Origin: a virus
IMG/VR virus record: IMGVR_UViG_3300042455_001086
Span: 124,001-188,000 of that record
Length of the DNA stretch: 64,000 nucleotides
Direction: 5' to 3' (one strand)
The position numbers and the translations under genes are program-made. The notes under the pieces were generated by a model. It was not told the DNA's origin. It did no database searches and saw nothing but the letters and a program-made list of their open reading frames with translations. This document shows, in pieces, positions 13,374 through 36,190 of the stretch. Within the stretch, counting starts at the first letter, position 1, and every line of letters starts with the position of its first letter.

Positions 13374-14603
13374 CTATTTTTTGAAATTGTAGGAAGTTTG
13401 AATTGGTCTTTTACCATACTTTTTTTCCATAAGTTTCTGGTGTAGATCCCAATCTAATATTGATTCATTTGTTTGTTCCTTTTCATCCGGAATCAATGAA
13501 TAAATTTTTGATATTTTTTTCATAAGTTTTGTTGCAACATAATTAAATCTTTCACATTCGTCTTTGAAGAAATCCAACTCTCTATTTTGGTATTTGGTTA
13601 TATGATTTATAAATTTATTCCTAACTTTTTCTTTATTTGGATTTATTTTCTCTCCACCACCCAATAGTTGTGCCATAAACCCATCAAACATACTGTTAAT
13701 CTTTTCTCGTTGTGAATAAAAATAATTATCAAAATTTTCAACTTTAGTATTTACTAAATTAACATATACCAATCTAAGCACCATTTTTATTTTTGTTTCA
13801 TCATCAACATTTGTTTCCATTCCAGCGTGTTCTAATAATCTATCAACCCTTTCCATTTCATTATACAAACTTTCAATCAAATAATCAAATGAAAAATTTT
13901 TAATATCTTGTAATTCTTTATATGCCGTATCATTTGTTATAAAATCATAAAACTGTTCTTTTGTAATACCTTTCTTTAACATTCTAGTTGAGATCTCAGT
14001 TGGTCTTACCAGATTTTCGGTCATTTGAATAAAATAACTGTATCTCATAAACTTATTTAAGATTGGTATTCCAAAATTTAATCTACCTGATGAGTACGCC
14101 TGGTAATCGGCAAGATCGCCTACGAATCCTTTTGTTTTTTTTGTTCTATCGTATTTGTGTTTTAATTCGTGAGCCATAACTGAAACTGTATGTGCTTCAT
14201 CTTCTTGGAATTTTTCTAATATTTCCTCTGGTTCCCACATTTCTGCCGCAACAAAATTAATGTGTAATATTAAAGTTTTATTTACCGGTGAAATCTGCAT
14301 GAGTATAGCATTATCAAAAATAAATTCGTTTGAGACACCCATCGCCGCTATTTCTGGTTTTCCATCGTAATCTTCAACTTCTTGGATTTCAACTATAACT
14401 TTGATATGATCTATTGTTATATCTGAAATTTGTAATTCTTTATCTTCAATATCAAATTCGTATTCTATATCATTTTCATTTATTGATTTTAACTTTTCTA
14501 GAACAATACTATATAGTTCTTCGGCCGCTTCCATAATTCCTTTTGGAACACCAACAGCTTCTGTGATTAGTCTTAATTGATTTTCGGTTATTAGGATTTT
14601 CAT
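13374..14603 (-). CDS. Zincin metalloprotease with capsid-targeting-like leader
   Basis: A 409-residue protein. Residues 1-16 (MKILITENQLRLITEA) look like a cleavable head-targeting leader ending in Ile-Thr-Glu. The protease signature is VMAHELKHKYD, with HELKH at residues 145-149 giving two His ligands and the catalytic Glu. Glu203 in RPTEIS is a candidate third ligand. The rest is helical, with no membrane segment. If packaged in the head it could be injected and degrade a host target, or it could act in head maturation. Both are inferences from the leader and the late-type promoter box at its start. Confidence 0.75.
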   Translation of the reverse strand: MKILITENQLRLITEAVGVPKGIMEAAEELYSIVLEKLKSINENDIEYEFDIEDKELQISDITIDHIKVIVEIQEVEDYDGKPEIAAMGVSNEFIFDNAILMQISPVNKTLILHINFVAAEMWEPEEILEKFQEDEAHTVSVMAHELKHKYDRTKKTKGFVGDLADYQAYSSGRLNFGIPILNKFMRYSYFIQMTENLVRPTEISTRMLKKGITKEQFYDFITNDTAYKELQDIKNFSFDYLIESLYNEMERVDRLLEHAGMETNVDDETKIKMVLRLVYVNLVNTKVENFDNYFYSQREKINSMFDGFMAQLLGGGEKINPNKEKVRNKFINHITKYQNRELDFFKDECERFNYVATKLMKKISKIYSLIPDEKEQTNESILDWDLHQKLMEKKYGKRPIQTSYNFKK

Positions 14604-14606
14604 AAT

Positions 14607-14614
14607 AATAAATA
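14607..14614 (-). promoter_or_regulatory. Late-type box TATTTATT before the zincin gene
   Basis: The box lies 3 nt before the ATG at 14603. Confidence 0.45.
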
Positions 14615-14629
14615 TATTGGAGTTATAGT

Positions 14630-15283
14630 TTATCCAACAACACCAACTAAATCATCCAGGTGGTGATCTCCAGACATATCGGACCCAACTGGTCTTTTAT
14701 CCATAATTTTGATTATTTCATCAATACTATATGGGTCCAATCCATTTCCATCAACACCAACATCCATTTTTTTACCATTACCGAATTTGGCTTCTCGTCC
14801 AAGGTGTGAGTGTCCGTGTAAATGGATAACACCTTTGTTAAGACCATTCCAACTTTGTAATGGATAATGACATAAAACAAAGTTTCTGTCATTTATTCTA
14901 ACTTCCAAGTAGTGATTTACACTTAAAAATCTTGATTGGATATTTTCTTTGTTATTAACTATATGTTGGTCGTGATTACCAAGTATTAGATGAATGTTTT
15001 TACAAATCAATCTTTCTAAGAAAATACCAATATTCTCAAACCCACCAAATGAAACATCACCTAACATAATCAATGTATCGTCCTGACCCACCATATTGTT
15101 AATTCCATCTACCAATCGTTGGTTCATCTGCTCGATAGTTTGAAAATCTCTTGTTGAATCAACTGGGATTTTTCCATCTTGAGTTCTCCAATTCGTCACA
15201 CCACGACAAATATTTTGGTGTCCGAAATGTGTATCGCTCACTATAAACACTTTTCCTATTGTTTCTAATGTTTTAAATTTCAT
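14630..15283 (-). CDS. Calcineurin-like metallophosphoesterase
   Basis: A 217-residue phosphoesterase with all dinuclear-metal motifs in order: SDTHFGH (Asp17, His19), MLGDVSFGG (about 73-81), LGNHDQH (about 103-109), an isolated His in LCHYPL (about 138) and HLHGHSHLG (about 153-161). It resembles phage and bacterial YfcE or PPP-type phosphoesterases acting on phosphodiesters. The substrate is unknown; the nearby RNA-repair-like genes make nucleic-acid ends possible. It follows the WC-motif paralogue by 11 nt. Confidence 0.85.
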   Translation of the reverse strand: MKFKTLETIGKVFIVSDTHFGHQNICRGVTNWRTQDGKIPVDSTRDFQTIEQMNQRLVDGINNMVGQDDTLIMLGDVSFGGFENIGIFLERLICKNIHLILGNHDQHIVNNKENIQSRFLSVNHYLEVRINDRNFVLCHYPLQSWNGLNKGVIHLHGHSHLGREAKFGNGKKMDVGVDGNGLDPYSIDEIIKIMDKRPVGSDMSGDHHLDDLVGVVG

Positions 15284-15294
15284 AGTTTTTATCT

Positions 15295-16257
15295 TTAAGG
15301 TAAATCATCTAAATAATTATAATCTTCATCTAAATAATTATAATCTATGGTATTATTTAATCCTATCGTTGCACTCGATAGTCCTAACAATTCTTTAATC
15401 CTACCAAGTTGGATATTTCCAGTTGTACTCGGTTGAGGATTACTTATAACAATATCCCCATAATTCGCGTTTCCAGATATGGTATGTCCATAAAAATGTG
15501 GATCATTTGTTAATATTCTATCACTAATTGGGTAGTCAGCTATTTTTCTTACACTTTTCACATTATCACCCCAACCAATTAAATCTCCAGTTGTCTTATC
15601 CCTTTGTAGTTCTTTTCTAATTTTTAAAAACAATTCATCCGGAATAAAGTCAATAAACATTGGATCAACTTCTCTATCTTGTTGATCCCAAGCTTGGAAC
15701 TTTTCATTTCTAAACTCTCTTGAGAATGCGATTTTTGTATCCGTTTTTTTATTTAAAACATAAATCAACCTATGTGTTGTTAAATATTGATTCCAATATT
15801 TTTCTTGTGTTACACACCATTTTGTGTTTGTACCATATACTTTAGATGCTTCAAAACTTAATGGTGTTAGAATAAACCAGGTTTCATCTTCGTGAATATT
15901 TAATATTTCTTTTTCAATTTTTTTTCTGTTTTCAATTTCTTCGGCGACTTTAACGGCTTCGTTTAATTCTAAAAAATTTTTGTATTGACTAATATCTTTA
16001 ATTTTAATTCTATTTGCCTTTGAATGTCTTTCAAATTCATTTAGAGTTTCAACCTCACCGGAACCAAATAGGAATATACCCATATATCCCATAAATTCAT
16101 CTTTGTTAGAACTATAATAATCACTATCTCTTTTAAAATTCTTAATTAAGAACTCTGTATATTTGTAAGAATCCGTTGGATCCAAATGTGAAATAATATC
16201 AATTAGTGATATGTTCAAATCCGGATGTTGTTCTTTTAATCTGTCTAATCTACTCAT
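15295..16257 (-). CDS. WC-motif family protein (paralogue 2)
   Basis: A 320-residue protein related to that at 7390-8514. Shared parts are the opening (SYKYTEFLIKNF), a charged helical region, and the core ILTPLSFEASKVYGTNTKWC followed by LIYVLNKKTDTKIAFSRE and WDQQDREVD. The last 70 residues differ, with a GHTISGNANYGDIVISN stretch and a C-terminal direct repeat of a Tyr-Asn-Tyr-Leu-Asp-Glu-Asp type. The function is unknown. It overlaps the kinase-like gene by 4 nt. Confidence 0.65.
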   Translation of the reverse strand: MSRLDRLKEQHPDLNISLIDIISHLDPTDSYKYTEFLIKNFKRDSDYYSSNKDEFMGYMGIFLFGSGEVETLNEFERHSKANRIKIKDISQYKNFLELNEAVKVAEEIENRKKIEKEILNIHEDETWFILTPLSFEASKVYGTNTKWCVTQEKYWNQYLTTHRLIYVLNKKTDTKIAFSREFRNEKFQAWDQQDREVDPMFIDFIPDELFLKIRKELQRDKTTGDLIGWGDNVKSVRKIADYPISDRILTNDPHFYGHTISGNANYGDIVISNPQPSTTGNIQLGRIKELLGLSSATIGLNNTIDYNYLDEDYNYLDDLP

Positions 16258-16646
16258 AATTTTATACTAAAACGATTTTTCATTTGTTCTATCTTATCTT
16301 CTGGAACATTGTGTTCGTTGGTATTTCCGTGACGATTTTCAACAATTATAGTAAAAACTTTATATCCAAATTCTTTTGCTAAATCAAAATATGGTGTCAT
16401 CTCCCATTCTTGTGTAAAGGTGTTTGAGACAACAATTTTTTCACGAGCAACGGCCATATCGGTTTTAACCTTATCTAAACACCAAGTATGAGCATTTTTA
16501 ATTTTTGTCCCATCAAATTTATATTCACCGGTATTTGGATCAATAAAATACATATCAGCTTCATAATGTTTTCCACCTAAAGTTTTAGCAAATGTTGATT
16601 TTCCAGCACCACAAATCCCGCGGCATATCACAAGTATTTTTTCCAT
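16254..16646 (-). CDS. Polynucleotide-kinase-like P-loop protein
   Basis: A 130-residue P-loop protein. Walker A is RGICGAGKST (residues 9-18). EADMYF, then YKFDGTKIKNAHTWC, and VVSNTFTQEWEMTPY match the AAA_33/N4BP2L1-like branch related to the T4 Pnkp kinase domain. Such enzymes transfer phosphate to 5'-OH ends of RNA or DNA. It has no phosphatase domain of its own, but separate HAD genes exist in the window. With the RNA ligase it would make an end-healing and sealing pair, though the genes are 6 kb apart. Confidence 0.8.
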   Translation of the reverse strand: MEKILVICRGICGAGKSTFAKTLGGKHYEADMYFIDPNTGEYKFDGTKIKNAHTWCLDKVKTDMAVAREKIVVSNTFTQEWEMTPYFDLAKEFGYKVFTIIVENRHGNTNEHNVPEDKIEQMKNRFSIKL

Positions 16647-16683
16647 AAAACAAAATTAAAAAAAATATCTTATAAAAACAAGA

Positions 16684-16763
16684 AAAGGAACCATTTCTGA
16701 TTCCTTTAATTTGGGTCGACATTGAATGTCAACTCTCCACCACCTTGTTTTGATAGAACAAGG
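16684..16763 (-). terminator. Hairpin-rich 3' region with terminator
   Basis: Three inverted repeats follow the gene at 16767-17039. In transcription order they are CCTTGTT/AACAAGG (16743-16763), GACAT/ATGTC (16718-16730) and AAAGGAA/TTCCTTT (16684-16707), the last followed by T-rich DNA. The final hairpin is a likely terminator. No gene is seen here. Confidence 0.6.
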
Positions 16764-16766
16764 AAA

Positions 16767-17039
16767 CTACTTTGTAACCAACGCCTCAATCTTACTTTTA
16801 ACCTGTTCGGTTATTGATATTTCTTTTGTGTTTGTAACTATTATACAATCACCCAATGTTTTTGCTGGTATATTCACATAAAATGTATCTCCATTAAAAA
16901 AAGATAAATTCTCTTTTAATTCAACACTTGCATGAACCATCTTCAAAAATAATTTGAATTGTGTCTGATCCATAAATGTTTCATTTAGTAATTCACCAAA
17001 GGTTTCGTGTAATATTCTTATGTTAAATCCTATTTTCAT
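16767..17039 (-). CDS. Hypothetical protein, 90 aa
   Basis: A 90-residue soluble protein starting MKIGFNIRILHETFGELL. Its middle is beta-rich with a PAKTLGDCIIVTNTKEISI segment, and it ends in a basic helix. The ATG at 17039 is chosen because a full promoter ends 4 nt before it; an upstream GTG would lie within the promoter. It is a single-gene unit closed by the hairpins below. Confidence 0.7.
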   Translation of the reverse strand: MKIGFNIRILHETFGELLNETFMDQTQFKLFLKMVHASVELKENLSFFNGDTFYVNIPAKTLGDCIIVTNTKEISITEQVKSKIEALVTK

Positions 17040-17043
17040 ATCA

Positions 17044-17075
17044 CAAATATAATGAACTTTTTGATATAAAACAAA
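17044..17075 (-). promoter_or_regulatory. Vegetative promoter (TTTG-N20-TATATTTG)
   Basis: TTTG lies at 17072-17075 and TATATTTG at 17044-17051 on the minus strand, spaced 20 nt. The distance to the ATG is again 4 nt (TGAT). Confidence 0.75.
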
Positions 17076-17209
17076 AAATCTCACAAATTATATTACTAAT
17101 CTATGAGATTTTAAATTATTACCAACAAAATAAGAAGGATATGTGGTTTTTTTGTGTTTTATAAATACTATGAAATTCACAAAAAGTCAAAAATTTTTCA
17201 AAATTTCCA

Positions 17210-17470
17210 TCATATTTTTTGTTTTTTTTGTCTCCGGAAGGTCATTTTTAGTAAAATACCAATAAGATTCAAATTTTTTTTATCAATTTTCAAATGCGTT
17301 TCTTCCTTAAATTCTCTAACAGCAGCATCAATTGGTAATTCATCTTTATCCATATGTCCAGATGGTATAGACCATTCCAATGGTAAAGATTCGTTTTTTG
17401 ATCTTTTACACAAAAGTAATTTATCATTATATTTAACAACAACTCCGGCTATTTTTTTTAATTCAGACAT
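17210..17470 (-). CDS. Nudix hydrolase, C-terminally short
   Basis: An 86-residue protein with an intact Nudix box: GHMDKDELPIDAAVREFKEE (about residues 38-57), with the REFKEET catalytic Glu residues. The N-terminus (AGVVVKYNDKLLLCKRS) is the normal first strands. Nudix proteins are usually 130-150 residues; this one ends soon after the box with a basic tail (MTFRRQKKQKI). A frameshift in the A-rich tract near 17240 may have removed the rest, or it may be a minimal version. The box binds Mg and cleaves nucleoside diphosphate-X bonds. Confidence 0.7.
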   Translation of the reverse strand: MSELKKIAGVVVKYNDKLLLCKRSKNESLPLEWSIPSGHMDKDELPIDAAVREFKEETHLKIDKKNLNLIGILLKMTFRRQKKQKI

Positions 17471-17476
17471 AAGATA

Positions 17477-17484
17477 TATTTATA
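17477..17484 (+). promoter_or_regulatory. Late-type box TATTTATA before the DUF192 gene
   Basis: The box is on the plus strand, 5 nt before the ATG at 17490. Confidence 0.4.
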
Positions 17485-17489
17485 TAAAT

Positions 17490-17837
17490 ATGGAGATTTT
17501 ACTTAATAATAATCTGTTGAATGTAAAATGTGTAATGAATTCAAAAGACACTCAAAAAGGAATGATGGGTAGAAAATTTTCAAATGAATTTGATGGGATG
17601 TTGTTTATTATGAATGATAAAGAACACTCATTCTGGATGAAAGACTGTATCATACCATTAGATATTATTTTTATCGAAAATAATAGAGTTTCTAAAATAC
17701 ACCATAACTGCAAACCTTGTAGGCAAGAGCCTTGTAAAAGATACAAAGGTAATGGCGATATGGTTTTAGAGGTTAAAGGTGGTTTCTGTAATGAGTATGA
17801 TATTGAGATTGGTGATATTCTAACTTTTAACGATTAG
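17490..17837 (+). CDS. DUF192 family protein
   Basis: A 115-residue protein matching DUF192 from end to end: KGMMGRKFSNEFDGMLFIM, HSFWMKDCIIPLDIIFIE, then an isolated Pro-Cys segment, MVLEVKGGF and a closing IGDILTF. DUF192 proteins are small secreted or cytoplasmic beta barrels of unknown biochemical role. Extra Cys residues (CKPCRQEPC) occur in the loop. The open frame extends upstream, but the ATG at 17490 fits the family start. It is the first plus-strand gene in the window and converges with the DUF3310 gene, overlapping it by 11 nt. Confidence 0.75.
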   Translation: MEILLNNNLLNVKCVMNSKDTQKGMMGRKFSNEFDGMLFIMNDKEHSFWMKDCIIPLDIIFIENNRVSKIHHNCKPCRQEPCKRYKGNGDMVLEVKGGFCNEYDIEIGDILTFND

Positions 17838-18054
17838 ATTTTAATATATCAATATGGTGCTGTAAATACCAAGCGGCTTTTTCCAAATCTTGTATTTCTT
17901 TATCCGGATCTTTCTTCCCGGCTCTTGAAATGTATTTTACCGTGTTGCCCAATGAAAACCCAAGATTCCAAGCATCAATCACCTTTATGGCTTCATAAAT
18001 GTTCGTTTCTCCACCATAATGATTAGGATGATTTACCTGTTCCTTATTTTCCAT
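17827..18054 (-). CDS. DUF3310 family protein
   Basis: A 75-residue protein that is a full DUF3310 domain: VNHPNHYGG near the start, YEAIKVIDAWNLGFSLGNTV, KYISRAGKKDPDKEIQDLEK and WYLQHHI. The family is common in phages, sometimes fused to or annotated as nucleotide kinase (SaV-like), and may act in nucleotide metabolism. The start at 18054 (MENKEQ) is preferred to an ATG at 18072, because the 36-codon gene before it overlaps this ATG. Confidence 0.8.
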   Translation of the reverse strand: MENKEQVNHPNHYGGETNIYEAIKVIDAWNLGFSLGNTVKYISRAGKKDPDKEIQDLEKAAWYLQHHIDILKSNR

Positions 18055-18923: not shown

Positions 18924-18961
18924 TTGGAATAATAATAATCATATAATATTTTCAGTAAATA

Positions 18962-20473
18962 TTAGTCGGTTCTCATTACAACAAATTCTTTATCACCGAC
19001 ATCAATCATACTATATTGTCCGTCGTATGAACTCAAAGTTTCACCATAATCACTATCTCTAATCAAATCGTCTTTTAGTCGATCCTTGTCAATATAATTG
19101 TAAAGTTCATCACCACCAAAACCCATTTCATCTAACCAATCAGCAGGTCTTCTCCTTATTTGGTCCAAATAATCTTCAACAGCTTCTTCAATATCATCAT
19201 CACTTGGGTCACCATCTGGATTATCTTTTATTTCTTCAATCTCATATTCAATATCTGATATTCTACTATCTCTATCGTCTTGATGGTCTTGTGTGTCCTC
19301 GTCGTCATATATTTGATTGGGATCTACTCTTACACCATCTTTATCTAAAAACCAATTACCACCTTCTTCATAATATTGAAACCTATTACCTTCTTCATCT
19401 TCAAAATCAAAAACTCCACCATCTTCTTTTGTTGCATGTTGAATTGGAAATCTTACACCAGTATTTTCAAGAATATATTTTTCCATTTCAAGTAGCCAAA
19501 TTTCTTCTTCTTGGTCACTACTTAATTGTTTTTCAACATTATAAGACTCTGGTTCTTCATATATCCAATCTCTTACTGTGTCTTCCCAACCTTCGGCTAA
19601 AGCGTCTCCATCTATATAATAAGATAGTCGGTCTTTACTGATATAATGTTCTGGATTCTCGACCCATTCTTCGTAGTAATCCTCCATAGCGACATCAGCT
19701 TCAGATTCTGTTCCAACGGTATATTCATAACCGGTTGATAAACATTCAAAACTATCCATTCTATAGTTAGTTCCACTCGGATAGAAATCATAAACATCGG
19801 ATTTTCCTGAAATTAACTCATCTCTTTCTTCTTCAAGTTCTAATTGTTTATTTGTAATCTCATCAAATTTTTCACTATACTCTTCATCATCTAGGTTCAA
19901 ATTTTGTTGTTCTTCTTCAAGTCTTTGAATTTCTTCTTCAATTTCTTTGACACTATCTCTATCATCGTCCGTTAAACCACTAACATCACCTCTTTCCATC
20001 GCATATAAAAAGACGGCATTTGCTCTTAATCCTTCATCATCTGTATTGGCCAGATTCCACACATCATTTCTTCTCCGTTCTTCCTGTTCTCTATATTTTT
20101 CTTGTTGTATTCTTCTTTGGACTAAACCATAATAAGGTGTGTCCCAATACCTTTTACTTCCGGTAACTTCGGTGTTGTCAAGATTTTTTATTTTAGTGTA
20201 ATTAACACTTAAATCACCCTCAATTCTAATTGATCCAAGATCTATTAAATTATTACTATCAATACCGTCTAATTTTAAACTACCAGTTACAACAATTTTT
20301 TTATTTTTAAATTTTGACATTTTTGGAATTAAATGTGCATTATATCCCACATGTCTTAAAAGCATTGTATATTCTTCTGGTGTAAATCTCACTTCCTCCA
20401 CTTCTTGTTCTTTAATAATATCCTTAACTAATTTAATCAAATTTGATTCTGTAAGTCTTAAAATTCTTTTCAT
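18962..20473 (-). CDS. Acidic protein with capsid-targeting-like leader
   Basis: A 503-residue, very acidic protein. The first 23 residues are a basic amphipathic leader (MKRILRLTESNLIKLVKDII, then KEQ) ending in an (I)-x-E site. Residues 55-110 are beta-rich with repeated strands (KKIVVTGSLKL, IRIEGDLSVNYTKI). Residues 130-230 form a long charged coiled coil (EEEIQRLEEEQQNL type), and two Asp/Glu-dense regions follow. The structure would suit an internal head or scaffold-associated protein; no enzyme motif is seen. A TATTTATT box lies before the start. Confidence 0.65.
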   Translation of the reverse strand: MKRILRLTESNLIKLVKDIIKEQEVEEVRFTPEEYTMLLRHVGYNAHLIPKMSKFKNKKIVVTGSLKLDGIDSNNLIDLGSIRIEGDLSVNYTKIKNLDNTEVTGSKRYWDTPYYGLVQRRIQQEKYREQEERRRNDVWNLANTDDEGLRANAVFLYAMERGDVSGLTDDDRDSVKEIEEEIQRLEEEQQNLNLDDEEYSEKFDEITNKQLELEEERDELISGKSDVYDFYPSGTNYRMDSFECLSTGYEYTVGTESEADVAMEDYYEEWVENPEHYISKDRLSYYIDGDALAEGWEDTVRDWIYEEPESYNVEKQLSSDQEEEIWLLEMEKYILENTGVRFPIQHATKEDGGVFDFEDEEGNRFQYYEEGGNWFLDKDGVRVDPNQIYDDEDTQDHQDDRDSRISDIEYEIEEIKDNPDGDPSDDDIEEAVEDYLDQIRRRPADWLDEMGFGGDELYNYIDKDRLKDDLIRDSDYGETLSSYDGQYSMIDVGDKEFVVMRTD

Positions 20474-20478
20474 ACAAT

Positions 20479-20486
20479 AATAAATA
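20479..20486 (-). promoter_or_regulatory. Late-type box TATTTATT before the 503-aa gene
   Basis: The box lies 5 nt before the ATG at 20473 on the minus strand. Confidence 0.4.
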
Positions 20487-24098: not shown

Positions 24099-26054
24099 TT
24101 AAAAATCAGTTGGTCCTTCACTAACACATTGATCGGTAATATAATCTGGGAAGTTTGGTGACCACAACTCATCACCAACAATTAAATATTGTGCCAATTC
24201 TTCTGGCACATTCTTAATGTCCAAACCAGAATTTCTTTTTGATATAAAGGTCAAACAAGGACAATTAAGTAGTGTCACAGGTAGTGTTTTTAATTCACGA
24301 CAATTTGTTATATTCAAGAAAGATAATTCTTTACATTCACCAATTTCTTCAGGAATTGATTTAACAATATTAGTAACAGAAAGTGTATATAAATTTTTAA
24401 GCCTACCGATCGTTTCAGGGAGTTCAATATAAATCTCATCGTTTGATTTGTTTTCTATTGTAAGCATTGTTGTATTTTCCGGTATTAACTCAAAAACTTC
24501 TCTAAATCCAAACATTCTGGCATATTTCGCATTTGGGTCACTTGGATAAATGATTTGAATAAACCCTGTGTTAAAATTTTCAATTTCTTTTTTGTATTTT
24601 GCTTTCAAACTTTTTAAATATGGTCTCATTTCTCTACTCATAATAACTTCCATATTATTTTCACTTAAATCTTTCAAGGATTTTGTAAGCAATTTTTCTT
24701 TTTTCTTTGATACATAATATGACATAGCACTTGGTGTAAGGACTCTAACCATTCCAGCGCTTAATTCATTTCCAAGTCCAATGTATTTCTTTTGCATTTC
24801 TTCTGGAAGATTCTTAAATATTTCATCCCCATTTTGTGTTGATTTTAAATCTGGGCTTCTTAATTCTAACCACATTTCAACTTCTTGGTAACCACCAAGT
24901 TCAGTTATAGGATCTGTAGTTTTTAAATTATAAGACTTATATTTTTGCATTTTATCTTGATCCTCATCAGTAAATGGTTTTCCTTCCAAATATTTTTCTT
25001 TATCTTTAAGAACTGGAATTTTACTTAAAATCTCACTCCAAGGAATAACAGTAGATCCGGCATATCTTCCAGAATTAGAACCATCGGCTAACCTCTTTTC
25101 GCCCCACTTATCAACAAGAATAACTGAAGCGTAATTTAAATCTGATTCTGGTAAATTTTTGTTGATGATATAATAAAGTGTAAGATTTTGATTTAATCTA
25201 TAATTGTAATAGTAATTTGAAGCACCCTCCCAAGATGTACACCATCTTCTATCTGGTGCAAATTTCTTTCTAATGTTAATACATTTATGTTTTTGATCTG
25301 GCGCAAAGATTAATACATTATCATCCTCATATGCAATATCAACATCGCTTGTGTCAACTTCAGGAACATCATACTCACTTTCTTCCATTGGTGTATAACC
25401 ATCAACAGCATGTTCAAATTCATCAAATGTCATAAACGCACTTAACTTCATATTGATTGGAAATAAGTTGTAGTGTTTTACAAATCTTTTTGCTCTCGGT
25501 AAAATTACTGTCATAACATCCTCTTCCGGTAATTGATCGTGGAATTTTTGTGCGATTGCAACAATAAGTTCATTGACACCTTGGTTATTAAATTTTGAAA
25601 AGTATCTTTCAACCAAAGAATTTAATTCTGCCGGAGTATAAGTTGTAACTTCTTTCTTAAATTCTTTTAATTGTGGTAATTGTGTTTTAATTTCAAAAAA
25701 CTTCTTGATATTTGTTTTTACTAATTGTAAATCGGTTCCTTTATATTTTTGGATATAGTCTTGAACCATATCTTCAAGATTCTTTTTACTTTTTTGTTTT
25801 GTTGCCTTATCTTCAATAAGTTTTTTAAGTTTTTCGTATGTATGTTTAAAAATGTCTTTGTCTTCATTTGCAAACGCACTTTTAAATCTTTCAAAGTCGG
25901 CAATATTTTTTCTTATCATTTCTTCAGAATCTTGAGTTTCTTTAGAAAATTTATCTACTAACTTTTTAATTGTGGATTCTGGGTATTCCAATAGAATTTT
26001 TTTAGTGTTAGCATTCTCCTTAACTACATTTGATAATAGGTTGATTAATTCCAT
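24099..26054 (-). CDS. WC-motif protein with leucine-rich repeats and leader
   Basis: A 651-residue protein. The opening (MELINLLSNVVKENANTKKI, then LLE) resembles a head-targeting leader ending in Leu-x-Glu. Residues 30-180 are helical. The core near residues 240-330 has VLIFAPDQKHKCINIRKKF, then APDRRWCTSW and a Tyr-rich stretch, the distant version of the WC motif. Residues 530-640 form about three leucine-rich repeats (IGRLKNLYTLSVTN, IGECKELSFLNITNC type), a protein-binding surface. A TATTTATA box is present 13 nt upstream. A packaged effector protein is one reading; the function is unknown. Confidence 0.65.
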   Translation of the reverse strand: MELINLLSNVVKENANTKKILLEYPESTIKKLVDKFSKETQDSEEMIRKNIADFERFKSAFANEDKDIFKHTYEKLKKLIEDKATKQKSKKNLEDMVQDYIQKYKGTDLQLVKTNIKKFFEIKTQLPQLKEFKKEVTTYTPAELNSLVERYFSKFNNQGVNELIVAIAQKFHDQLPEEDVMTVILPRAKRFVKHYNLFPINMKLSAFMTFDEFEHAVDGYTPMEESEYDVPEVDTSDVDIAYEDDNVLIFAPDQKHKCINIRKKFAPDRRWCTSWEGASNYYYNYRLNQNLTLYYIINKNLPESDLNYASVILVDKWGEKRLADGSNSGRYAGSTVIPWSEILSKIPVLKDKEKYLEGKPFTDEDQDKMQKYKSYNLKTTDPITELGGYQEVEMWLELRSPDLKSTQNGDEIFKNLPEEMQKKYIGLGNELSAGMVRVLTPSAMSYYVSKKKEKLLTKSLKDLSENNMEVIMSREMRPYLKSLKAKYKKEIENFNTGFIQIIYPSDPNAKYARMFGFREVFELIPENTTMLTIENKSNDEIYIELPETIGRLKNLYTLSVTNIVKSIPEEIGECKELSFLNITNCRELKTLPVTLLNCPCLTFISKRNSGLDIKNVPEELAQYLIVGDELWSPNFPDYITDQCVSEGPTDF

Positions 26055-26067: not shown

Positions 26068-26075
26068 TATAAATA
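26068..26075 (-). promoter_or_regulatory. Late-type box TATTTATA before the WC/LRR gene
   Basis: The box lies 13 nt before the ATG at 26054. The rest of the 200 nt divergent spacer (26055-26257) shows no gene and no clear plus-strand promoter. Confidence 0.45.
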
Positions 26076-29817: not shown

Positions 29818-31146
29818 TTATTGTGTCGCTCTATCGTAGTTAATAAGTTTTTGGATTTTTGAAAACTCTTCTAAAACAAGATTTCTTCTTTTATCTAAAT
29901 CTGATTCTAGTTTAATATTAACACCAGATCCGGAGTTTTCGCCAGTACCATCCGTTATAGGTTGTTTTGATTTTCTATATGCGGCCATCTTAGCTTTACG
30001 ATATTTCTGATCTTTCATTTTCTTACTCAATTTTTTACCAAGATCAGTTTCTTCGGCATTTGCCCACTCCGGGTTATTTCCGGTTCTTGATGAACCTTCA
30101 ATATTATCTTTTACCCATTTTTCGTCATATTCAATTTCATCCGGAACCAAATTTTCCATTCCTGGTCTCATATAGTCATCCAAGAATTCTTTACCATCAT
30201 CAGACATTGTATATTTTTTTGTTTTCATTTTTTCCAACTGTCCGTTTCCTTTTGGGAAATGTTTTGGGTTTTCCTCATAATCACCTTTAGAACCGTCTTT
30301 TAAATAATCACCCATTTTCTTTTTAACTGATTTTAAGTAATCATCGTTTTCTTTTTTGGATTTTTTCACAGCTCTTTCATACTCACCAAGACCTTTTGGT
30401 GTTTTTCCTTTACTAATATTGTTTTGTTCTTTTAAAACAGCTTTTTCAATAATATCTAAAAGTTTTTCCTCACTTACAATAAATCCTTTTCCTCCCACTT
30501 CTAATTGGTATTTAACCTCTGAAGATTCGTTATTTTTTTGTTCTTTTTCAACGATACTAATAATTAACTGATCCAATTCAGACTCAGACAAAATAGTTTC
30601 TTCACCATCAATCTCCAAATTATACAATACAGATTCTTTTACTGGGAATTTTTTACCATCCAAATCAAAACTTTTCTTACCTTCTTTTTTTGCCATTTTC
30701 GCAGCATAAGTGAATTCACTACTTTCTTCCATTTCTTCGTCTAATTCCAACTCGTAAATAGCCTCATCACCTTCTTTTCTTAATTTATCAAAATCGGCTT
30801 TTGTTAATTTACCAAATGGTTTTGCTTTATCTAATTTCTTTTGACCACCATATAGTTTTTCAAGAACTTCACCTTCTTTCATTCCACATTCTGAACATTC
30901 GCCTTCTTTCATTTCACTACCACATTGTTCACAAGTTTCACCTTCACTCATTTCCTTACTACATTGCTCACAAGTTTCACCTTCTTTCATTTCACCACCA
31001 CATTGCTCACAAGTTTCACCTTCCTCAACATAATCAAATGATTCACCTGGTTTATTGAATTTCAATTTTTCCATAATATCATTTGTTTTATCTTCAAGAG
31101 TCTCGTTTAATATTTTGTTAGTTATTTTTGCAATTAAATTTTTCAT
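29818..31146 (-). CDS. Zinc-ribbon repeat protein with capsid-targeting-like leader
   Basis: A 442-residue protein. The leader MKNLIAKITNKILNETLEDK fits a head-targeting peptide cut after Leu-Asn-Glu. Residues 40-95 contain four Cys pairs in a repeated GETCEQCGGEMKE pattern (CEQC, CEQC, CEQC, CSEC), which should form tandem zinc knuckles. The rest is charged and helical with KKxGDYLKDGSKGDYEE and an Arg/Lys-rich C-terminus. The order leader, zinc repeats and acidic/basic coil suggests an internal head or scaffold protein. A TATTTATA box is present 14 nt upstream, next to a purine-rich RBS. Confidence 0.7.
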   Translation of the reverse strand: MKNLIAKITNKILNETLEDKTNDIMEKLKFNKPGESFDYVEEGETCEQCGGEMKEGETCEQCSKEMSEGETCEQCGSEMKEGECSECGMKEGEVLEKLYGGQKKLDKAKPFGKLTKADFDKLRKEGDEAIYELELDEEMEESSEFTYAAKMAKKEGKKSFDLDGKKFPVKESVLYNLEIDGEETILSESELDQLIISIVEKEQKNNESSEVKYQLEVGGKGFIVSEEKLLDIIEKAVLKEQNNISKGKTPKGLGEYERAVKKSKKENDDYLKSVKKKMGDYLKDGSKGDYEENPKHFPKGNGQLEKMKTKKYTMSDDGKEFLDDYMRPGMENLVPDEIEYDEKWVKDNIEGSSRTGNNPEWANAEETDLGKKLSKKMKDQKYRKAKMAAYRKSKQPITDGTGENSGSGVNIKLESDLDKRRNLVLEEFSKIQKLINYDRATQ

Positions 31147-31160
31147 CTTTACTTTTTTAT

Positions 31161-31168
31161 TATAAATA
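31161..31168 (-). promoter_or_regulatory. Late-type box TATTTATA before the zinc-repeat gene
   Basis: The box lies 14 nt before the ATG at 31146, with AAAAAAGTAAAG between them. Confidence 0.45.
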
Positions 31169-31849
31169 TCATTTATTCTTTCTTTTTACAATTTCTTTGT
31201 AAATTATTTCTTTTATGAAATCTTCGTGAATATCCATTTTTTCTGAAAGATTGTTTATTACTTTTTTAATAGTATCGTTTTCAAATATTTTAAGGGCTTT
31301 AATATCACCTTGATTACAATAAGGAAATTTCTTACATTTTTTTTTAACCTGGACGAATTTACCACCCGGAATTTGTGTTTTAGATTTTCCTCTCCAATCT
31401 TTCTTACTAGTTGATTTAGCCCAAGCGGCCGGAGTTTCATAAGAACCAGACGATGATGATGAGGTTGCTTCCTTTGCTTCAACTTTCTTTGGTTCTTCAC
31501 CAGAAAATAGAGGTGCAGAATATGCACCAGCTGAAGATGCACCAGTCGATTCTTTATTTTCTTTTCTTCTATTTATTTTTTCCAGAATTGAAGTTAAAAA
31601 TTCTCTTAGTTCTTCTGGGTTTTTAAGAAATTCTTTAATTTTTTGTTTTATTCTAGTTCCTGATAATTTTTTATTTTTAACCAATTTTAAAATATCTCCC
31701 ATATTTTTTGGGTCATTAAGATATTCTTCCGGATTTTTATGTGTATCCTCCTCACTTAAACTTTTAAGTGCTTTTGTTCTAGCTTCTTGATTTCCAGCTG
31801 TTAAACTAGAAACCATTTGTTGTAATTTTGGTTTTATTGGGTCTTCCAT
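31169..31849 (-). CDS. Conserved phage protein with Ser/Gly-rich linker
   Basis: A 226-residue protein. Helical residues 1-95 are followed by a low-complexity Ser/Ala/Gly/Glu linker (STGASSAGAYSAPLFSG, about 100-140). The conserved block is KDWRGKSKTQIPGGKFVQVK, then CKKFPYCNQGD (about 150-185), and the C-terminus is helical. The DWRGxxKTQIPGGKFV and CxxFPYCNQGD segments recur in large phages of this group, usually among head genes, but no biochemical role is known to me. Confidence 0.65.
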   Translation of the reverse strand: MEDPIKPKLQQMVSSLTAGNQEARTKALKSLSEEDTHKNPEEYLNDPKNMGDILKLVKNKKLSGTRIKQKIKEFLKNPEELREFLTSILEKINRRKENKESTGASSAGAYSAPLFSGEEPKKVEAKEATSSSSSGSYETPAAWAKSTSKKDWRGKSKTQIPGGKFVQVKKKCKKFPYCNQGDIKALKIFENDTIKKVINNLSEKMDIHEDFIKEIIYKEIVKRKNK

Positions 31850-31850
31850 T

Positions 31851-32258
31851 TTATTTAAAAACTAAAGCGTATGTTAATCCAACTATAATTGAGCCACCAA
31901 CTATATCTATAATTATATGTTTTGTCTTAATTTTTTTTATTTCACTTCTTAAACTTTTATTTTCCTTATCTAATAATTTAAATTTTGATTCGGTTAGTGA
32001 TATTATTTGATTATTTTTTTTGTCCTTTTCTTCTAGGATTGAAATTATATCGTTGTTTTTGGTTATTTTCGTCTCCAATTGAAAAATTTCATTAATATAA
32101 GTTTCCTCTTGTTTCTTTAGTCGATCAAACTCATTTAAATCAAGTAAAATAGACTTACCAACTCTAGCTGGTATATTCAAGGTTGTTGAATCAACATTTT
32201 TTTGTGAAAACAAAAATGTTGTAAGACAAATAAAAATAATGTTTAAAATATATTTCAT
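31851..32258 (-). CDS. Spanin-like secreted coiled-coil protein
   Basis: A 135-residue protein with a signal peptide (MKYILNIIFICLTTFLFSQK), a coiled coil over residues 45-105 and a C-terminal hydrophobic helix (IIIDIVGGSIIVGLTYALVF). It follows an N-anchored coiled-coil gene with a 1 nt gap, beside the endolysin. Paired envelope coiled-coil proteins in this position are typical of spanins, which fuse the inner and outer membranes in lysis. No lipobox is present, so it is not a classic o-spanin. The start at 32258 is preferred to an ATG inside the upstream gene. Confidence 0.6.
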   Translation of the reverse strand: MKYILNIIFICLTTFLFSQKNVDSTTLNIPARVGKSILLDLNEFDRLKKQEETYINEIFQLETKITKNNDIISILEEKDKKNNQIISLTESKFKLLDKENKSLRSEIKKIKTKHIIIDIVGGSIIVGLTYALVFK

Positions 32259-32259
32259 A

Positions 32260-32613
32260 TTAATAGTTATATCTTTTTTTAAGTGCCGAATCAATTTGTC
32301 TGGCATCATAGGTCAAAATCAATTCTTTTTCAACCTGGAAATAATTGTTTATTGTTTTTCTTTCATTTTTAATTTTGAAAATAGCAGAATCAATTTTTAA
32401 AATATCTTTCTTGTAGTTTAAGATTGAACTATCCAATTTTTTTTGTTGGCTTTTTAAATCGTTAATTTTTAAATCCAGTTGTTCTAATTTATATTTTAAC
32501 AATTCAGATCTATCTTCCACTGGTGTAAAAGCTCTAATTACAAGAACAATCAATAGGATAATTCCAATTGACTGAATAATAAATTTGAAATTATGTTTAA
32601 AAAAATCTTTCAT
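32260..32613 (-). CDS. Inner-membrane coiled-coil protein (i-spanin-like)
   Basis: A 117-residue protein. A basic start (MKDFFKHNFK) and one transmembrane helix (FIIQSIGIILLIVLVIRAF, about 11-29) precede a periplasmic coiled coil (residues 36-95). This is the layout of i-spanins (Rz-like). The chosen ATG overlaps the stop of the previous gene (ATGA); an ATG 14 codons earlier lies deep in that gene. Its partner would be the secreted protein encoded next. Confidence 0.6.
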   Translation of the reverse strand: MKDFFKHNFKFIIQSIGIILLIVLVIRAFTPVEDRSELLKYKLEQLDLKINDLKSQQKKLDSSILNYKKDILKIDSAIFKIKNERKTINNYFQVEKELILTYDARQIDSALKKRYNY

Positions 32614-33206
32614 TCGGTTGGGGTTTTCTTTCGGCTTGCGATTATTTTGGACCATTTTGTTTTAAATTTCTCATAATATTTTTTCAAATCAACAAGAAAA
32701 GCAAGGTATTCCTCATCAATTTTTGTCATTGTTCCATTTATATAGACACCATTTTTTTCACCAATAGTATAGAAAAATTCAACATCAAGTTCGGTTATTT
32801 TTCCAGACCATTCAACATTGTTTTCATATAAATTAAGTTTATTAAAATCAACAAGTTCAGAAACTTCAACAACAAATTCATCCATAGTTTCTTGGAAAGC
32901 TCTTTTATCTTCAGTTGTTAATTGTAAATCTTTACTTTCCTTGCTATGTATTACCATAATACCTCCAGAAATTCTATAAGCTTTCTTTTTTTCTGACTTA
33001 TTTGATTTTTCTTCATCTTCCTCATTATCAGTTTCGGCTGTCTCATACTCTTTTGTTACCCCTTCAATTTCTTTTTCAACATCTTCTTGTTCTGTAAGTA
33101 ATTTATAATTGTTAATAATTTGTTTTGACTCACTTTCAGAAATTTGGGTTTTAAGAGCTTTTCTTGTTGCCTCCAATAATGTTTTAATTTCTTCGTATCT
33201 ACTCAT
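32610..33206 (-). CDS. Hypothetical protein with leader ending LLTEQ
   Basis: A 198-residue protein. The first 40 residues are helical and basic and end LLTEQ, like a head-targeting leader but longer. An acidic region (DNEEDEEKSNKSEKKK) follows, then a compact beta-rich domain (IMVIHSKESKDLQL; LDVEFFYTIGEKNGVYINGT). Its position between the amidase and the spanin-like genes is unexpected for a head protein. The start overlaps the amidase stop by 8 nt. Confidence 0.6.
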   Translation of the reverse strand: MSRYEEIKTLLEATRKALKTQISESESKQIINNYKLLTEQEDVEKEIEGVTKEYETAETDNEEDEEKSNKSEKKKAYRISGGIMVIHSKESKDLQLTTEDKRAFQETMDEFVVEVSELVDFNKLNLYENNVEWSGKITELDVEFFYTIGEKNGVYINGTMTKIDEEYLAFLVDLKKYYEKFKTKWSKIIASRKKTPTE

Positions 33207-33795
33207 CTTCAATTTTTTTTAAAAAATATTCAAAATTAAATGATGGGTTTAAATCTGTGGAATCTGAAAAGAAATTACTTCTAGTCAAAATACCATTTGT
33301 TTTTTCCGCACCATTTATTTTGGTGTTATGTCCAACAAATTTTTTCTCAATATTAAATTCTGTAATTAATTTTTTACATAAAAATATTGTAGAATTTATT
33401 TGTTCTTCTGTGTAAGTATCCCAAAAAATAAAATCTCTCCATTTTTTTTCGTATGGCTTACCTTTATAAATACTTCCAATCCAGTTAATGTATCCATTTT
33501 TTAATGGTTCTTTTTGCAACCATCCTAAATTTTCTAAACAAATCGTGATTGCGTTTTTATCTATTAACTTACTATTAAATATTTTAGATGTTTCTTCTTG
33601 GTTCAATAACTCCAAAATCTTACCTTCTTTATCTATAAAAAAATTTGGGATTTTATCGTATTTTCTATTTCCACGATATTTTAAGGCTGTAAGATATTCT
33701 TCGGCCAAACGAGAAGAATGTAGGAGTATTATTTGTTTTTTATTTTTATTTATACCTTGACCTAAAAAATTTCCGTATTTTATTATTTTAGTCAT
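33199..33795 (-). CDS. N-acetylmuramoyl-L-alanine amidase (endolysin)
   Basis: A 198-residue amidase of the Amidase_2/AmpD type. Candidate zinc ligands are His26 (IILLHSS), His156 (FVGHN) and Asp181 (DLNPSF), in the order seen in AmpD-like enzymes. It cuts the amide bond between N-acetylmuramic acid and L-Ala in peptidoglycan. No cell-wall binding domain and no signal peptide are visible, so release would need a holin or the neighbouring membrane proteins. It is followed by three genes of envelope type, forming a lysis cassette. Confidence 0.85.
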   Translation of the reverse strand: MTKIIKYGNFLGQGINKNKKQIILLHSSRLAEEYLTALKYRGNRKYDKIPNFFIDKEGKILELLNQEETSKIFNSKLIDKNAITICLENLGWLQKEPLKNGYINWIGSIYKGKPYEKKWRDFIFWDTYTEEQINSTIFLCKKLITEFNIEKKFVGHNTKINGAEKTNGILTRSNFFSDSTDLNPSFNFEYFLKKIEDE

Positions 33796-34858
33796 TAGAT
33801 TTTTTATAAACCAATCTTTTTATGTTTTGATTAACTTCTTCACCCTTTTCTTCGTTTGTTGGGATCCAGGATTTTTGTTCTGTTATATTCAATGGTTCTC
33901 TTTTGATTTCAATTGTTGGCATATCAACTACTTGGTCGGTACTTGGTCGGTACTTGGTCGGTACTTGGTCACTTTCTTGGTCACTTTCTTGGTTACCCTC
34001 ATCTACTTGGGGGGTAGTTGGGGGGTGGTTGGGGGTTGGTTGAATATTATCATCGTCCTTTTTATTCCCCTTAAACGCTTGGTTTGTTGCAATAACCAAT
34101 GTTATTGCCAATGGATCAAAAACAAAAATAAGAATCAAAATAAAAAGATTTGCCGTTCTTTTAATGTCCCAATTCAAAACCTCACTTAAATACTTTATGG
34201 TTCCCAATTCACTTCCTTCAATTTCCTGAGATTCCATATTTAATATCTCAACATCTAGATTTGTTATACTGTCATTTAAATTATCAATCTTTTTTGAAAT
34301 TGTATCTCTTCTTATTTGTGCATCTTTTAATTGATTTTCAAATGTCTTTCTATTGGCATTATTTGCTTTTGTTATGATTTGACCGGTCTTTCTATCAACT
34401 GATTGTGTGGTCGTATTATTTGATAAACCATCTCTTAATTTTGTAATATCACGATCCAAAGTTTCTTTTTCCTTGGTTAATTCATCTTTAATTTCTTCAA
34501 ATCTGGTTTTTTTAAGTTCAACATTTTTTACTTTTTTTCCACTGATTTCAAGTTTTGCAATATTCTGTTGGAAACCGGTACTTAATAAACCATAAATCCC
34601 AAGTGATGTAATGATTGAAAGTGTTACGAGGGCTGTTGTCATATATATTTTTAAAACACCATATACTTCGTCCCACTTATCGTGAAGATAAGTTGCAATT
34701 GCGAGTTTTGAGATTTCAAGAAAACTACCCATTATAATAACAGGAATTGCAACACCTGTAAAAACCACAGATAATCCAATAACACTATAGTAGGCCGCAG
34801 TTCCGGAAAGACCTAGCGCACAAAATAATAAAAACCAAGGTAATAATTTATCTTTCAT
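33788..34858 (-). CDS. Multi-span membrane protein with central coiled coil
   Basis: A 356-residue protein. The N-terminus has about three membrane helices (LLPWFLLFCALGLSG, VIGLSVVFTGVAIPV, TTALVTLSIITSLGI). A coiled coil of about 120 residues follows (KTRFEEIKDELTKEKETLDR region), then another helix (TANLFILILIFVFDPL) and a Pro/Gln-rich cytoplasmic tail containing tandem repeats. Similar proteins occur in many large phages. It lies beside the endolysin, so a holin-like or lysis-timing role is conceivable, though it is much larger than typical holins. Confidence 0.65.
   Translation of the reverse strand: MKDKLLPWFLLFCALGLSGTAAYYSVIGLSVVFTGVAIPVIIMGSFLEISKLAIATYLHDKWDEVYGVLKIYMTTALVTLSIITSLGIYGLLSTGFQQNIAKLEISGKKVKNVELKKTRFEEIKDELTKEKETLDRDITKLRDGLSNNTTTQSVDRKTGQIITKANNANRKTFENQLKDAQIRRDTISKKIDNLNDSITNLDVEILNMESQEIEGSELGTIKYLSEVLNWDIKRTANLFILILIFVFDPLAITLVIATNQAFKGNKKDDDNIQPTPNHPPTTPQVDEGNQESDQESDQVPTKYRPSTDQVVDMPTIEIKREPLNITEQKSWIPTNEEKGEEVNQNIKRLVYKKSND
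33930..33994 (-). repeat. 11 bp tandem repeat inside a coding region
   Basis: The unit CAAGTACCGAC (minus strand) occurs three times and is followed by a partial copy. It is preceded by two copies of a 12 bp unit (GACCAAGAAAGT). Because 11 is not a multiple of 3, each unit is read in a different frame, and gain or loss of one unit would shift the frame. Confidence 0.8.
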
Positions 34859-35339
34859 AATGAACAATTATATTCCCTTTGACAAATTTTGTAAATGACT
34901 TTAGATTTACAAATTCCTCAACAACTAAATCACCATCACTTTTTATGATAATTAATTTATTTTCTGGTTTATATGATAAAGTTTTTGGGTATATTATTGA
35001 AGTTACAATATTGAGGGAGTATGTTCCGTTTCTATTTAGATGTGGTACAACAATAAAATCAAAAAGATTTAAATAATCCTTAACTAATATACTTGTTTTA
35101 TTACCACCTTCTAATATTGTTTTAGCAAGCTCAGAAAAAACATCCGAGAATTCAAAAATAACATCACCAATAGTATTAACATCTACTCTACCAAATCTTG
35201 TATTAGGTGCTGTGGTTTCTTGAGAATGTATTGTTGCCACAACCTTAAATGTGTCACCATCTTCATCAGTGAAATCTCCCAAATTTATTCTTGCTCCTTG
35301 TTCAAGTATTATGTTTTTTAAAACACTTAATAGTTCCAT
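34848..35339 (-). CDS. Hypothetical protein with leader LKNIILEQ
   Basis: A 163-residue protein. The leader MELLSVLKNIILEQ ends at a Leu-x-Glu-type site. The body is beta-rich (DTFKVVATIHSQET, YSLNIVTSIIYPKTL), suggesting a small barrel domain. It has a late-type box 4 nt before the ATG and follows a terminator, so it begins a new transcription unit. Confidence 0.65.
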   Translation of the reverse strand: MELLSVLKNIILEQGARINLGDFTDEDGDTFKVVATIHSQETTAPNTRFGRVDVNTIGDVIFEFSDVFSELAKTILEGGNKTSILVKDYLNLFDFIVVPHLNRNGTYSLNIVTSIIYPKTLSYKPENKLIIIKSDGDLVVEEFVNLKSFTKFVKGNIIVHYER

Positions 35340-35343
35340 ATGT

Positions 35344-35351
35344 TATAAATA
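35344..35351 (-). promoter_or_regulatory. Late-type box TATTTATA before the LKNIILEQ gene
   Basis: The box lies 4 nt before the ATG at 35339 and overlaps the T-rich end of the ncRNA terminator. Confidence 0.5.
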
Positions 35352-35507
35352 TAAAACCCCCCGTAAAAACGGAGGGTTCAATGGATATTTAACCAATTAA
35401 GGTAGGTTTATCCAACCCGAATCTTTGCTATCACTTGATTCTCAGTGGTCAGCTTTACACTAGGAGGGCTGACATTCCTTGTTTCTGTGTTTGTGAACTA
35501 CATCAAC
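35350..35507 (-). ncRNA. Probable small non-coding RNA 1
   Basis: About 155 nt between a perfect promoter and a terminator, with no credible gene inside. The predicted RNA has a hairpin GTCAGC/GCTGAC with a 14 nt loop starting CCTCCT, then GGTT/AACC, then the terminator. The CCTCCT loop resembles an anti-Shine-Dalgarno and could pair with AGGAGG-like sites. Confidence 0.6.
35355..35378 (-). terminator. Terminator of ncRNA 1
   Basis: AACCCTCCGT/ACGGGGGGTT with one mismatch, followed on the minus strand by TTTTATATTT. Confidence 0.8.
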
Positions 35508-35511
35508 AATA

Positions 35512-35543
35512 CAAAGATATGTTCTTTTTTTTAATCTACCAAA
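35512..35543 (-). promoter_or_regulatory. Vegetative promoter (TTTG-N20-TATCTTTG) of ncRNA 1
   Basis: TTTG lies at 35540-35543 and TATCTTTG at 35512-35519 on the minus strand. It is divergent from the plus-strand gene at 35570. Confidence 0.8.
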
Positions 35544-35555
35544 TAATTTTTGTGG

Positions 35556-35563
35556 TATTTATT
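35556..35563 (+). promoter_or_regulatory. Late-type box TATTTATT before the plus-strand leader gene
   Basis: On the plus strand, 6 nt before the ATG at 35570. Confidence 0.45.
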
Positions 35564-35569
35564 ATAAAT

Positions 35570-36190
35570 ATGAAAAGTTTAATTAGGAGAATTTTAAAAG
35601 AGGAAGTTGAGACTTTCAGTATTAAAGAGATTGATTTACCAGATTTTCTTTTTGAAAATTTATTAACTGAAGGAAGGTCATCAATGCCTGTTGATAAAGA
35701 GCTTGTTGAAGAATTAAATAAATATGTTAAAGAAAGATACAACTGGCCACCAAATATAAAAAATGAATGGTGTAGCGATATAAAAGAAAAAGAATTACCA
35801 AATGAAAAAATTGTAAAATATTCTTGTTCTAAAAAATTTGAGATTAAAGTTTCTGATCATTGGGCGCAAAGACTTTTTAGGCCAGAAGAACCAGAGCATC
35901 AACCTGGTGGTAGATTATCACATTTAAATATATTATACCCTAGAAAACACGAAGGGTTGAATCTTTTTTTTGATTATAAAGATTCAATTAATGAATATTT
36001 TACAAATGCAACAAGTTGGGCACCTCCACAAACAAAAAGATTTTTACTTACTTTAGGTAATTATCAAGAAATTGTTGCGGTAAGAAAAGAAGGTAAAGGT
36101 CAGTATTACGCAGAATTTATAACACAAATAAAAGGAGAAAGATTTTTTGATACGGAAGATCTAAAAAAAACAATACGTTTATATCTATAA
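35570..36190 (+). CDS. Hypothetical protein with leader RRILKEE
   Basis: A 206-residue protein on the plus strand starting MKSLIRRILKEEVETFSIKE, a leader with a Leu-Lys-Glu site. The body has an FEIKVSDHWAQRLFRPEEPE segment and ends in a GERFFDTEDLKKTIRLYL helix. The DHWxxRL...HQPGGRL arrangement recalls compact nuclease or toxin-like folds but is not diagnostic. The open frame extends upstream through the ncRNA promoter; the ATG at 35570 is chosen because the leader and the box fit it. It stands alone between two minus-strand RNAs. Confidence 0.65.
   Translation: MKSLIRRILKEEVETFSIKEIDLPDFLFENLLTEGRSSMPVDKELVEELNKYVKERYNWPPNIKNEWCSDIKEKELPNEKIVKYSCSKKFEIKVSDHWAQRLFRPEEPEHQPGGRLSHLNILYPRKHEGLNLFFDYKDSINEYFTNATSWAPPQTKRFLLTLGNYQEIVAVRKEGKGQYYAEFITQIKGERFFDTEDLKKTIRLYL

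What the first reader, a model, noticed from the sequence alone, without database searches (positions are those of the whole stretch)
13374..36190. Seven unrelated proteins share a head-targeting-like N-terminal leader
Genes at 13374, 18962, 24099, 29818, 32610, 34848 and 35570 begin with a short amphipathic, mostly basic helix that ends in (L/I)-x-E: LITE/A, IIKE/Q, ILLE/Y, ILNE/T, LLTE/Q, IILE/Q and ILKE/E. T4 internal head proteins carry such capsid-targeting sequences, cut by the prohead protease after (L/I)-x-E. The bodies behind the leaders are unrelated: a metalloprotease, a WC/LRR protein, a zinc-repeat protein and four unknowns. Six of the seven also have the TATTTAT box. This predicts a regulon of proteins carried in the capsid and delivered to the host.
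Basis: partly seen in the sequence, partly recalled or inferred. Interest (0 to 1): 0.78.

Follow-up and report, generated by a model that had tools for sequence, protein, structure and literature searches.

The report
Capsid-cargo leader peptides in Bacteroidota phage
A large uncultured phage, probably infecting freshwater Bacteroidota, starts about fifty otherwise unrelated proteins with interchangeable short helical leaders ending in leucine/isoleucine-any-glutamate, the same site its own capsid protein carries for the head protease, so these proteins are probably loaded into the capsid, trimmed and injected into the host.

Summary
All seven leaders are present; six of seven genes have TATTTAT close upstream. 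They belong to a genome-wide set: profile models find 42 leader N-termini among 313 genes (about 49 with further candidates). An unbiased pattern gives 39/304 against 6 in shuffles. The 42 bodies fall into 41 unrelated families.

Homologous bodies in related phages carry different leader classes. Leaders occur in dozens of other metagenomic phages; 95/95 pattern hits lie within 12 codons of an ATG. Conservation runs through P3 (I/L/V), P2 (variable) and P1 (Glu), then collapses.

The predicted protease exists: an S77/gp21 family member beside a gp23-type capsid protein with invariant LINE^A at the position of T4's FLTE^A. The HExxH protein family keeps [LI]xE^A while its leader is 15 or 21 residues long.

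Best reading: T4-type capsid-targeting sequences, expanded from T4's four ejected proteins to dozens. Packaging, cleavage and injection are inferred; no virion proteome was available. Caveats: the box looks like a general late-promoter element, some contigs and bacterial genomes carry the leader without S77, and most cargo functions are unknown.

The parts
14559..14603 (-). leader MKILITENQLRLITE^ of the HExxH (metalloprotease-like) protein 13374-14603, class B
   Evidence: HMM class B E 2e-9; [LI]xE^A kept in family with 15- or 21-residue leaders; AF2 residues 1-17 pLDDT < 50
14608..14614 (-). TATTTAT box of 13374
20408..20473 (-). leader MKRILRLTESNLIKLVKDIIKE^ of protein 18962-20473, class A
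   Evidence: HMM class A E 4e-13; AF2 residues 1-11 and 16-23 pLDDT < 50
20480..20486 (-). TATTTAT box of 18962
25986..26054 (-). leader MELINLLSNVVKENANTKKILLE^ of the LRR-containing protein 24099-26054
   Evidence: [LR]E^YPEST junction kept in the full-length homologues read; weak LRR match
26069..26075 (-). TATTTAT box of 24099
31102..31146 (-). leader MKNLIAKITNKILNE^ of the CxxC-repeat protein 29818-31146
   Evidence: ILNE^T kept in homologue L098_12057
31162..31168 (-). TATTTAT box of 29818
33090..33206 (-). leader-like N-terminus ending LLTE^Q of protein 32610-33206; weakest of the seven, no box
   Evidence: LLTEQEDVE kept in homologue L098_9442; HMM E only 0.09
35301..35339 (-). leader MELLSVLKNIILE^ of protein 34848-35339, class C
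   Evidence: HMM class C E 2e-4
35345..35351 (-). TATTTAT box of 34848
35556..35562 (+). TATTTAT box of 35570
35570..35602 (+). leader MKSLIRRILKE^ of protein 35570-36190, class C
   Evidence: HMM class C E 1e-9

Best explanation
The leaders are capsid-targeting propeptides of the T4 type. Late in infection the proteins are made with an N-terminal basic amphipathic helix that docks them onto the prohead core (inferred). The phage's S77 (gp21-family) protease then cuts after the Glu of (L/I)xE, the site also present in its major capsid protein (site shown by sequence, cutting inferred). The freed proteins stay in the head and enter the host with the DNA (inferred). The leader is a module joined to dozens of unrelated bodies (shown), so the phage would carry an exchangeable set of virion-borne proteins, among them an HExxH protein, a GH19/peptidoglycan-binding protein and an Ntn-hydrolase-like protein.
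For: S77 protease, gp23 and T4 portal encoded. MCP site LINE^A invariant in 79 relatives and aligned with T4 FLTE^A. 39/304 leaders against 6 in shuffles, repeated in G001 with 41/327. 41 body families for 42 leaders. Leader classes swapped on homologous bodies. Class A logo: P3 I/L/V, P2 free, P1 E, then collapse. [LI]xE^A kept despite a 6-residue leader insertion. The 3636 family has leader-IxE^ATS like the mature MCP start, plus further [ILV]xE sites. T4 gp24, cut by gp21, begins MAKINELLRE^S like class C. 13 of 19 leader-bearing contigs over 80 kb encode S77. AF2 leaves most leader residues below pLDDT 50, outside the folded body. T4 rules from PMC9026906 and PMC7411985.
Against: No virion proteomics or cleavage data. 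Six leader-bearing contigs have no S77, gp23 or gp20 hit (fragments or another head type). Ten of 13 bacterial genomes with class A-like leaders lack S77. A GH19 protein (lysis function possible) carries a leader. The regex also catches some false positives, such as a GIY-YIG-like protein at 50489.
Confidence: 0.8

Rival explanations
1. The leader targets proteins into the prohead core, but most carriers are assembly or core proteins that are degraded and leave the head, like T4 gp22, gp67 and gp68; few are delivered to the host.
For: Core-position gene 13665 and the 3636 family near the MCP carry leader-like N-termini and 3636 has several [ILV]xE sites.
Against: Many carriers are variable, genome-specific proteins in the accessory 60-120 kb region, some with enzyme-like domains and few homologues, unlike conserved assembly proteins.
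Confidence: 0.1
2. The leader is a sorting signal of another kind (membrane, a replication compartment, or a tail/baseplate site) and the final Glu is part of the helix, not a cut site.
For: Leaders occur in bacterial genomes and contigs without S77.
Against: Sharp end of conservation at Glu, free P2, kept junction despite length change, and the same site in the MCP.
Confidence: 0.07
3. The shared N-termini are recombination leftovers: a mobile promoter-plus-leader DNA cassette copied in front of genes, without a role for the peptide.
For: The class C array at genome 84-90 kb is nearly identical at DNA level, codon for codon; some leader genes sit beside an IS1595 transposase in Prevotella.
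Against: Classes A and B keep the peptide through many synonymous changes and recur in many distant phages.
Confidence: 0.02
4. Chance: (L/I)xE is short and common in an AT-rich phage proteome.
For: [LI]xE occurs about once per 66 residues in this proteome.
Against: 39 against 6 in shuffles, 0-2 decoys for profile models below E 0.1, conservation in relatives.
Confidence: 0.01

Closest known systems
Phage T4 capsid-targeting sequences (IPI, IPII, IPIII, Alt) and the gp21-cut propeptides of gp23 and gp24
   Same: Short N-terminal propeptide ending in (L/I)xE, unrelated bodies, S77 protease, gp23-type capsid protein with the same site (PMC9026906, PMC7411985).
   Different: About 42-49 carriers instead of four ejected proteins; four leader classes, up to about 22 residues or more, with consensus such as MKKIIRLTESDLTRIVKRVINE; the T4 IPIII leader itself was not aligned here; packaging not shown.
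Ejected (E) proteins of giant phages SPN3US and phiKZ
   Same: Large phages with many head proteins, some with N-terminal propeptides cut by a distant gp21 homologue after a short motif ending in Glu (PMC7411985, PMC10052503).
   Different: The SPN3US motif is AxE, most of its head proteins (42) are uncut, and no shared leader family on dozens of proteins is described in the passages read.
bS21-encoding freshwater Bacteroidetes phages (PMC9723584)
   Same: S21 gene on the opposite strand inside the portal/protease/MCP cluster; genomes up to 331 kb.
   Different: The paper passages read do not mention leaders or packaged proteins; the S21 match here is just under the Pfam cut-off.
Far-T4 phages (PMC4360716)
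   Same: Divergent T4-like gp23/gp20 phages common in lakes and sea.
   Different: Membership was not tested by phylogeny here.

Membership tests
T4-type capsid-targeting / gp21 propeptide system | S77 prohead protease encoded by the phage | tested here: met
   PF03420, 80 bits against cut-off 27, genome 11778-12506
T4-type capsid-targeting / gp21 propeptide system | gp23-type capsid protein with an (L/I)xE cut site after an N-terminal propeptide | tested here: met
   PF07068 E 9e-73; LINE^A aligned with T4 FLTE^A, invariant in 79 relatives; site only, cutting not shown
T4-type capsid-targeting / gp21 propeptide system | Short N-terminal propeptide ending in (L/I)xE | tested here: met
   P3 is V or M in a minority
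T4-type capsid-targeting / gp21 propeptide system | Unrelated mature bodies behind the propeptide | tested here: met
   41 families among 42 proteins
T4-type capsid-targeting / gp21 propeptide system | Sequence match to the IPIII targeting residues (positions 4 and 7) | not tested
   IPIII was not fetched; only gp22, gp23 and gp24 N-termini were read
T4-type capsid-targeting / gp21 propeptide system | Late expression with head genes | tested here: inconclusive
   TATTTAT shared with structural genes and enriched at leader genes; no transcript data
T4-type capsid-targeting / gp21 propeptide system | Leader removed in the prohead; protein present in virion and ejected | not testable with these tools
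   needs proteomics
bS21-encoding freshwater Bacteroidetes phage clades | bS21 gene on the opposite strand within the portal/protease/MCP region | tested here: inconclusive
   PF01165 E 1.9e-6 at genome 13497-13643 +, 26.1 bits against cut-off 27; position and strand fit

The most novel reading that the evidence does not exclude
These phages run a sequence-coded capsid loading system: interchangeable leader cassettes (late box plus helix plus IxE) let unrelated genes be captured and loaded as virion-borne proteins, about fifty per genome, with lineages reshuffling leaders and bodies much as bacterial secretion effectors are reshuffled.
Probability: 0.55. Interest if true: 0.86.

Novelty: new variant of a known kind. 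Interest (0 to 1): 0.75.

Why it matters
If true, the leader grammar lets one list the proteins that uncultured T4-like phages carry in their heads straight from metagenomic sequence. T4's few ejected proteins include an anti-restriction factor and an RNA-polymerase modifier (PMC9026906); here dozens of unknown proteins become candidate first-strike takeover or anti-defence factors. It also gives a simple, testable rule for which proteins a capsid takes in. A search of 5.4 million open papers found no mention of the class A motif strings, which says only that those letters are not printed there.

Tried and rejected
Chance: rejected by shuffles and internal segments. [LI]xE alone as evidence: too weak. 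Paralogous bodies: rejected, 41 families for 42 proteins. Purely DNA-level cassette: rejected for classes A and B, open for the class C array. tblastn with a 23-residue leader found nothing in the phage collection, and the search for related loci refuses such short queries; a degenerate DNA pattern was used instead. Pfam and PHROGs name very few cargo proteins. Foldseek of the models of 18962 and 13374 against PDB gave no match with E below 0.1. p-crAssphage as an S77-free control was not held under its accession; phi38:1 was used instead. Profile-HMM counts are partly circular because the models were trained on N-termini; the regex counts are the unbiased ones.

Full report
The window is bases 124,001-188,000 of a 257,166-base IMG/VR virus record. 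I read the rest of the record in stretches. It is a T4-like phage. Its head cluster at genome 7,990-18,422 holds a gp23 capsid protein (PF07068, E 9e-73), a scaffold-like acidic protein, an S77 prohead protease (PF03420, E 2e-22) and a T4-type portal with intein domains (PF07230, PF14890). An S21-like gene lies on the opposite strand inside this cluster, as described for freshwater Bacteroidetes phages (PMC9723584). The host is inferred from that resemblance and from cultured relatives such as Flavobacterium phage immuto.

Observation. All seven leaders are there, and six of the seven genes have TATTTAT close upstream. [LI]xE by itself is common, so I tested a stricter pattern: 39 of 304 N-termini match, against 6.0 +- 2.4 after shuffling (maximum 14 in 200) and about 1-3% in internal segments. 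A near relative, G001, gives 41 of 327 against 6.0; other S77 relatives are enriched too; the part of Cellulophaga phage phi38:1 that I read (no S77 annotated) gives 1 of 69 against 1.2. Profile HMMs of four leader classes find 42 N-termini in this genome with essentially no decoys, though the models were trained on N-termini. With seven further candidates the total is about 49.

The leaders are modules. The 42 bodies fall into 41 blastp families. In related phages homologous bodies carry different leaders: the 2727 family has MNLNRIIKKVLKE or MKRIVKLTEQDLVKIVKKIVNE; the FDWDDN family (HAD-like by motif only) has MNQKKYIKKLINE or MNIKLTESQYKLLKE; similar swaps occur at 72907, 78919, 67754, 84368 and 88973. 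Classes A and B keep the peptide through many synonymous changes, so selection acts on the peptide; the class C array at 84-90 kb is nearly identical DNA and may spread by recombination.

The leaders end like a protease site. In 83 distinct class A leaders the information is high up to P3 (I 52, L 15, V 14), low at P2, high at P1 (E in 72 of 83) and collapses after it. In the family of the window's HExxH protein 13374, leaders are 15 or 21 residues long, yet 14 of 15 distinct N-termini join the body through [LI]xE^A and one has Met at P3; P2 is K, N, S, Q, T or I. The full-length homologues of 24099 keep [LR]E^YPEST.

The same site is in the capsid protein. LINE^A is invariant in the 79 relatives whose N-terminus I could read and aligns with T4 FLTE^A, immuto IVSE^A and Mel-JY01 LISE^A. 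The conserved gene 3636 near the MCP has leader-IxE^ATS, the residues that follow the MCP site, and further conserved [ILV]xE sites including one before DL(A/G)VWFG. T4 gp24, annotated as cut by gp21, starts MAKINELLRE^S, very like class C. T4 gp21 cuts after L/I-x-E, and T4 capsid-targeting sequences are short N-terminal propeptides that bring IPI-III and Alt into the core and are then removed; these proteins enter the host with the DNA (PMC9026906, PMC7411985).

Structure. AlphaFold2 models of 18962 (8 sequences) and 13374 (19 sequences) put most of the leader below pLDDT 50 as a separate helix, with confident body structure starting a few residues after the predicted cut. Foldseek found no significant relatives.

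Distribution. Of 19 leader-bearing viral contigs over 80 kb, 13 encode S77, including all four over 290 kb. The other six also lack gp23 and gp20 hits; G011 has a weak tail-sheath match, so some are probably fragments, but a different head type is not excluded. Class A-like leader genes also occur in Prevotella and other bacterial genomes, ten of 13 tested without S77, several beside an IS1595-like transposase. These are the main loose ends.

Regulation. TATTTAT lies within 45 bases upstream of 30 of 49 leader genes and 52 of 264 others (odds ratio 6.4, p 1e-8); relatives show the same (odds ratio 6.1, p 1e-10). It also precedes scaffold, core and other structural genes, so it is more likely a general late-promoter element than a cargo-specific regulon. 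This is inference; no transcript data were used.

Conclusion. What is shown: a large, modular family of N-terminal leaders, conserved as peptides, ending in the site that the phage's own capsid protein carries for a gp21-type protease encoded in the same genome. What is inferred: core docking, cutting, packaging and ejection. I place this as an expanded variant of the T4 capsid-targeting system, confidence 0.8.

Noticed in passing
L352, L355, L357, L359 (Prevotella/Bacteroidaceae genomes): Class A-like leader genes (MNKKLIRLTESDLHRIVKESV...) sit beside IS1595-like transposase genes in bacterial chromosomes or MAG contigs, as if carried as passengers; 10 of 13 such genomes tested lack S77. The transposase was confirmed by Pfam only in L357.
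   Followed up: partly
L006:10526-11473 (genome 90526-91473): AAT-type Ntn-hydrolase-like protein (PF03417) with a class C leader; a second site LVE^C directly precedes Cys in TLVECTIAGVRID, so cutting there could expose an N-terminal Cys nucleophile. Speculative.
   Followed up: no
L006:14481-15479 (genome 94481-95479): GH19 plus peptidoglycan-binding protein with a class B leader: endolysin or virion-borne muramidase?
   Followed up: no
L002:14400-18422: The portal gene carries intein splicing domains and an HNH endonuclease.
   Followed up: no
L006:3916-11473 (genome 84-91 kb): Array of about nine genes with near-identical leader DNA (MNLQESIRRILREE) and unrelated bodies, as if a leader cassette were copied or genes were captured behind it.
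   Followed up: partly
window 13374-14603, C-terminus: The last 30 or so residues (TNESILDWDLHQKLMEKKYGKRP...) are almost invariant in the HExxH family although AlphaFold gives much of them low confidence; a second signal or processing site is possible.
   Followed up: no
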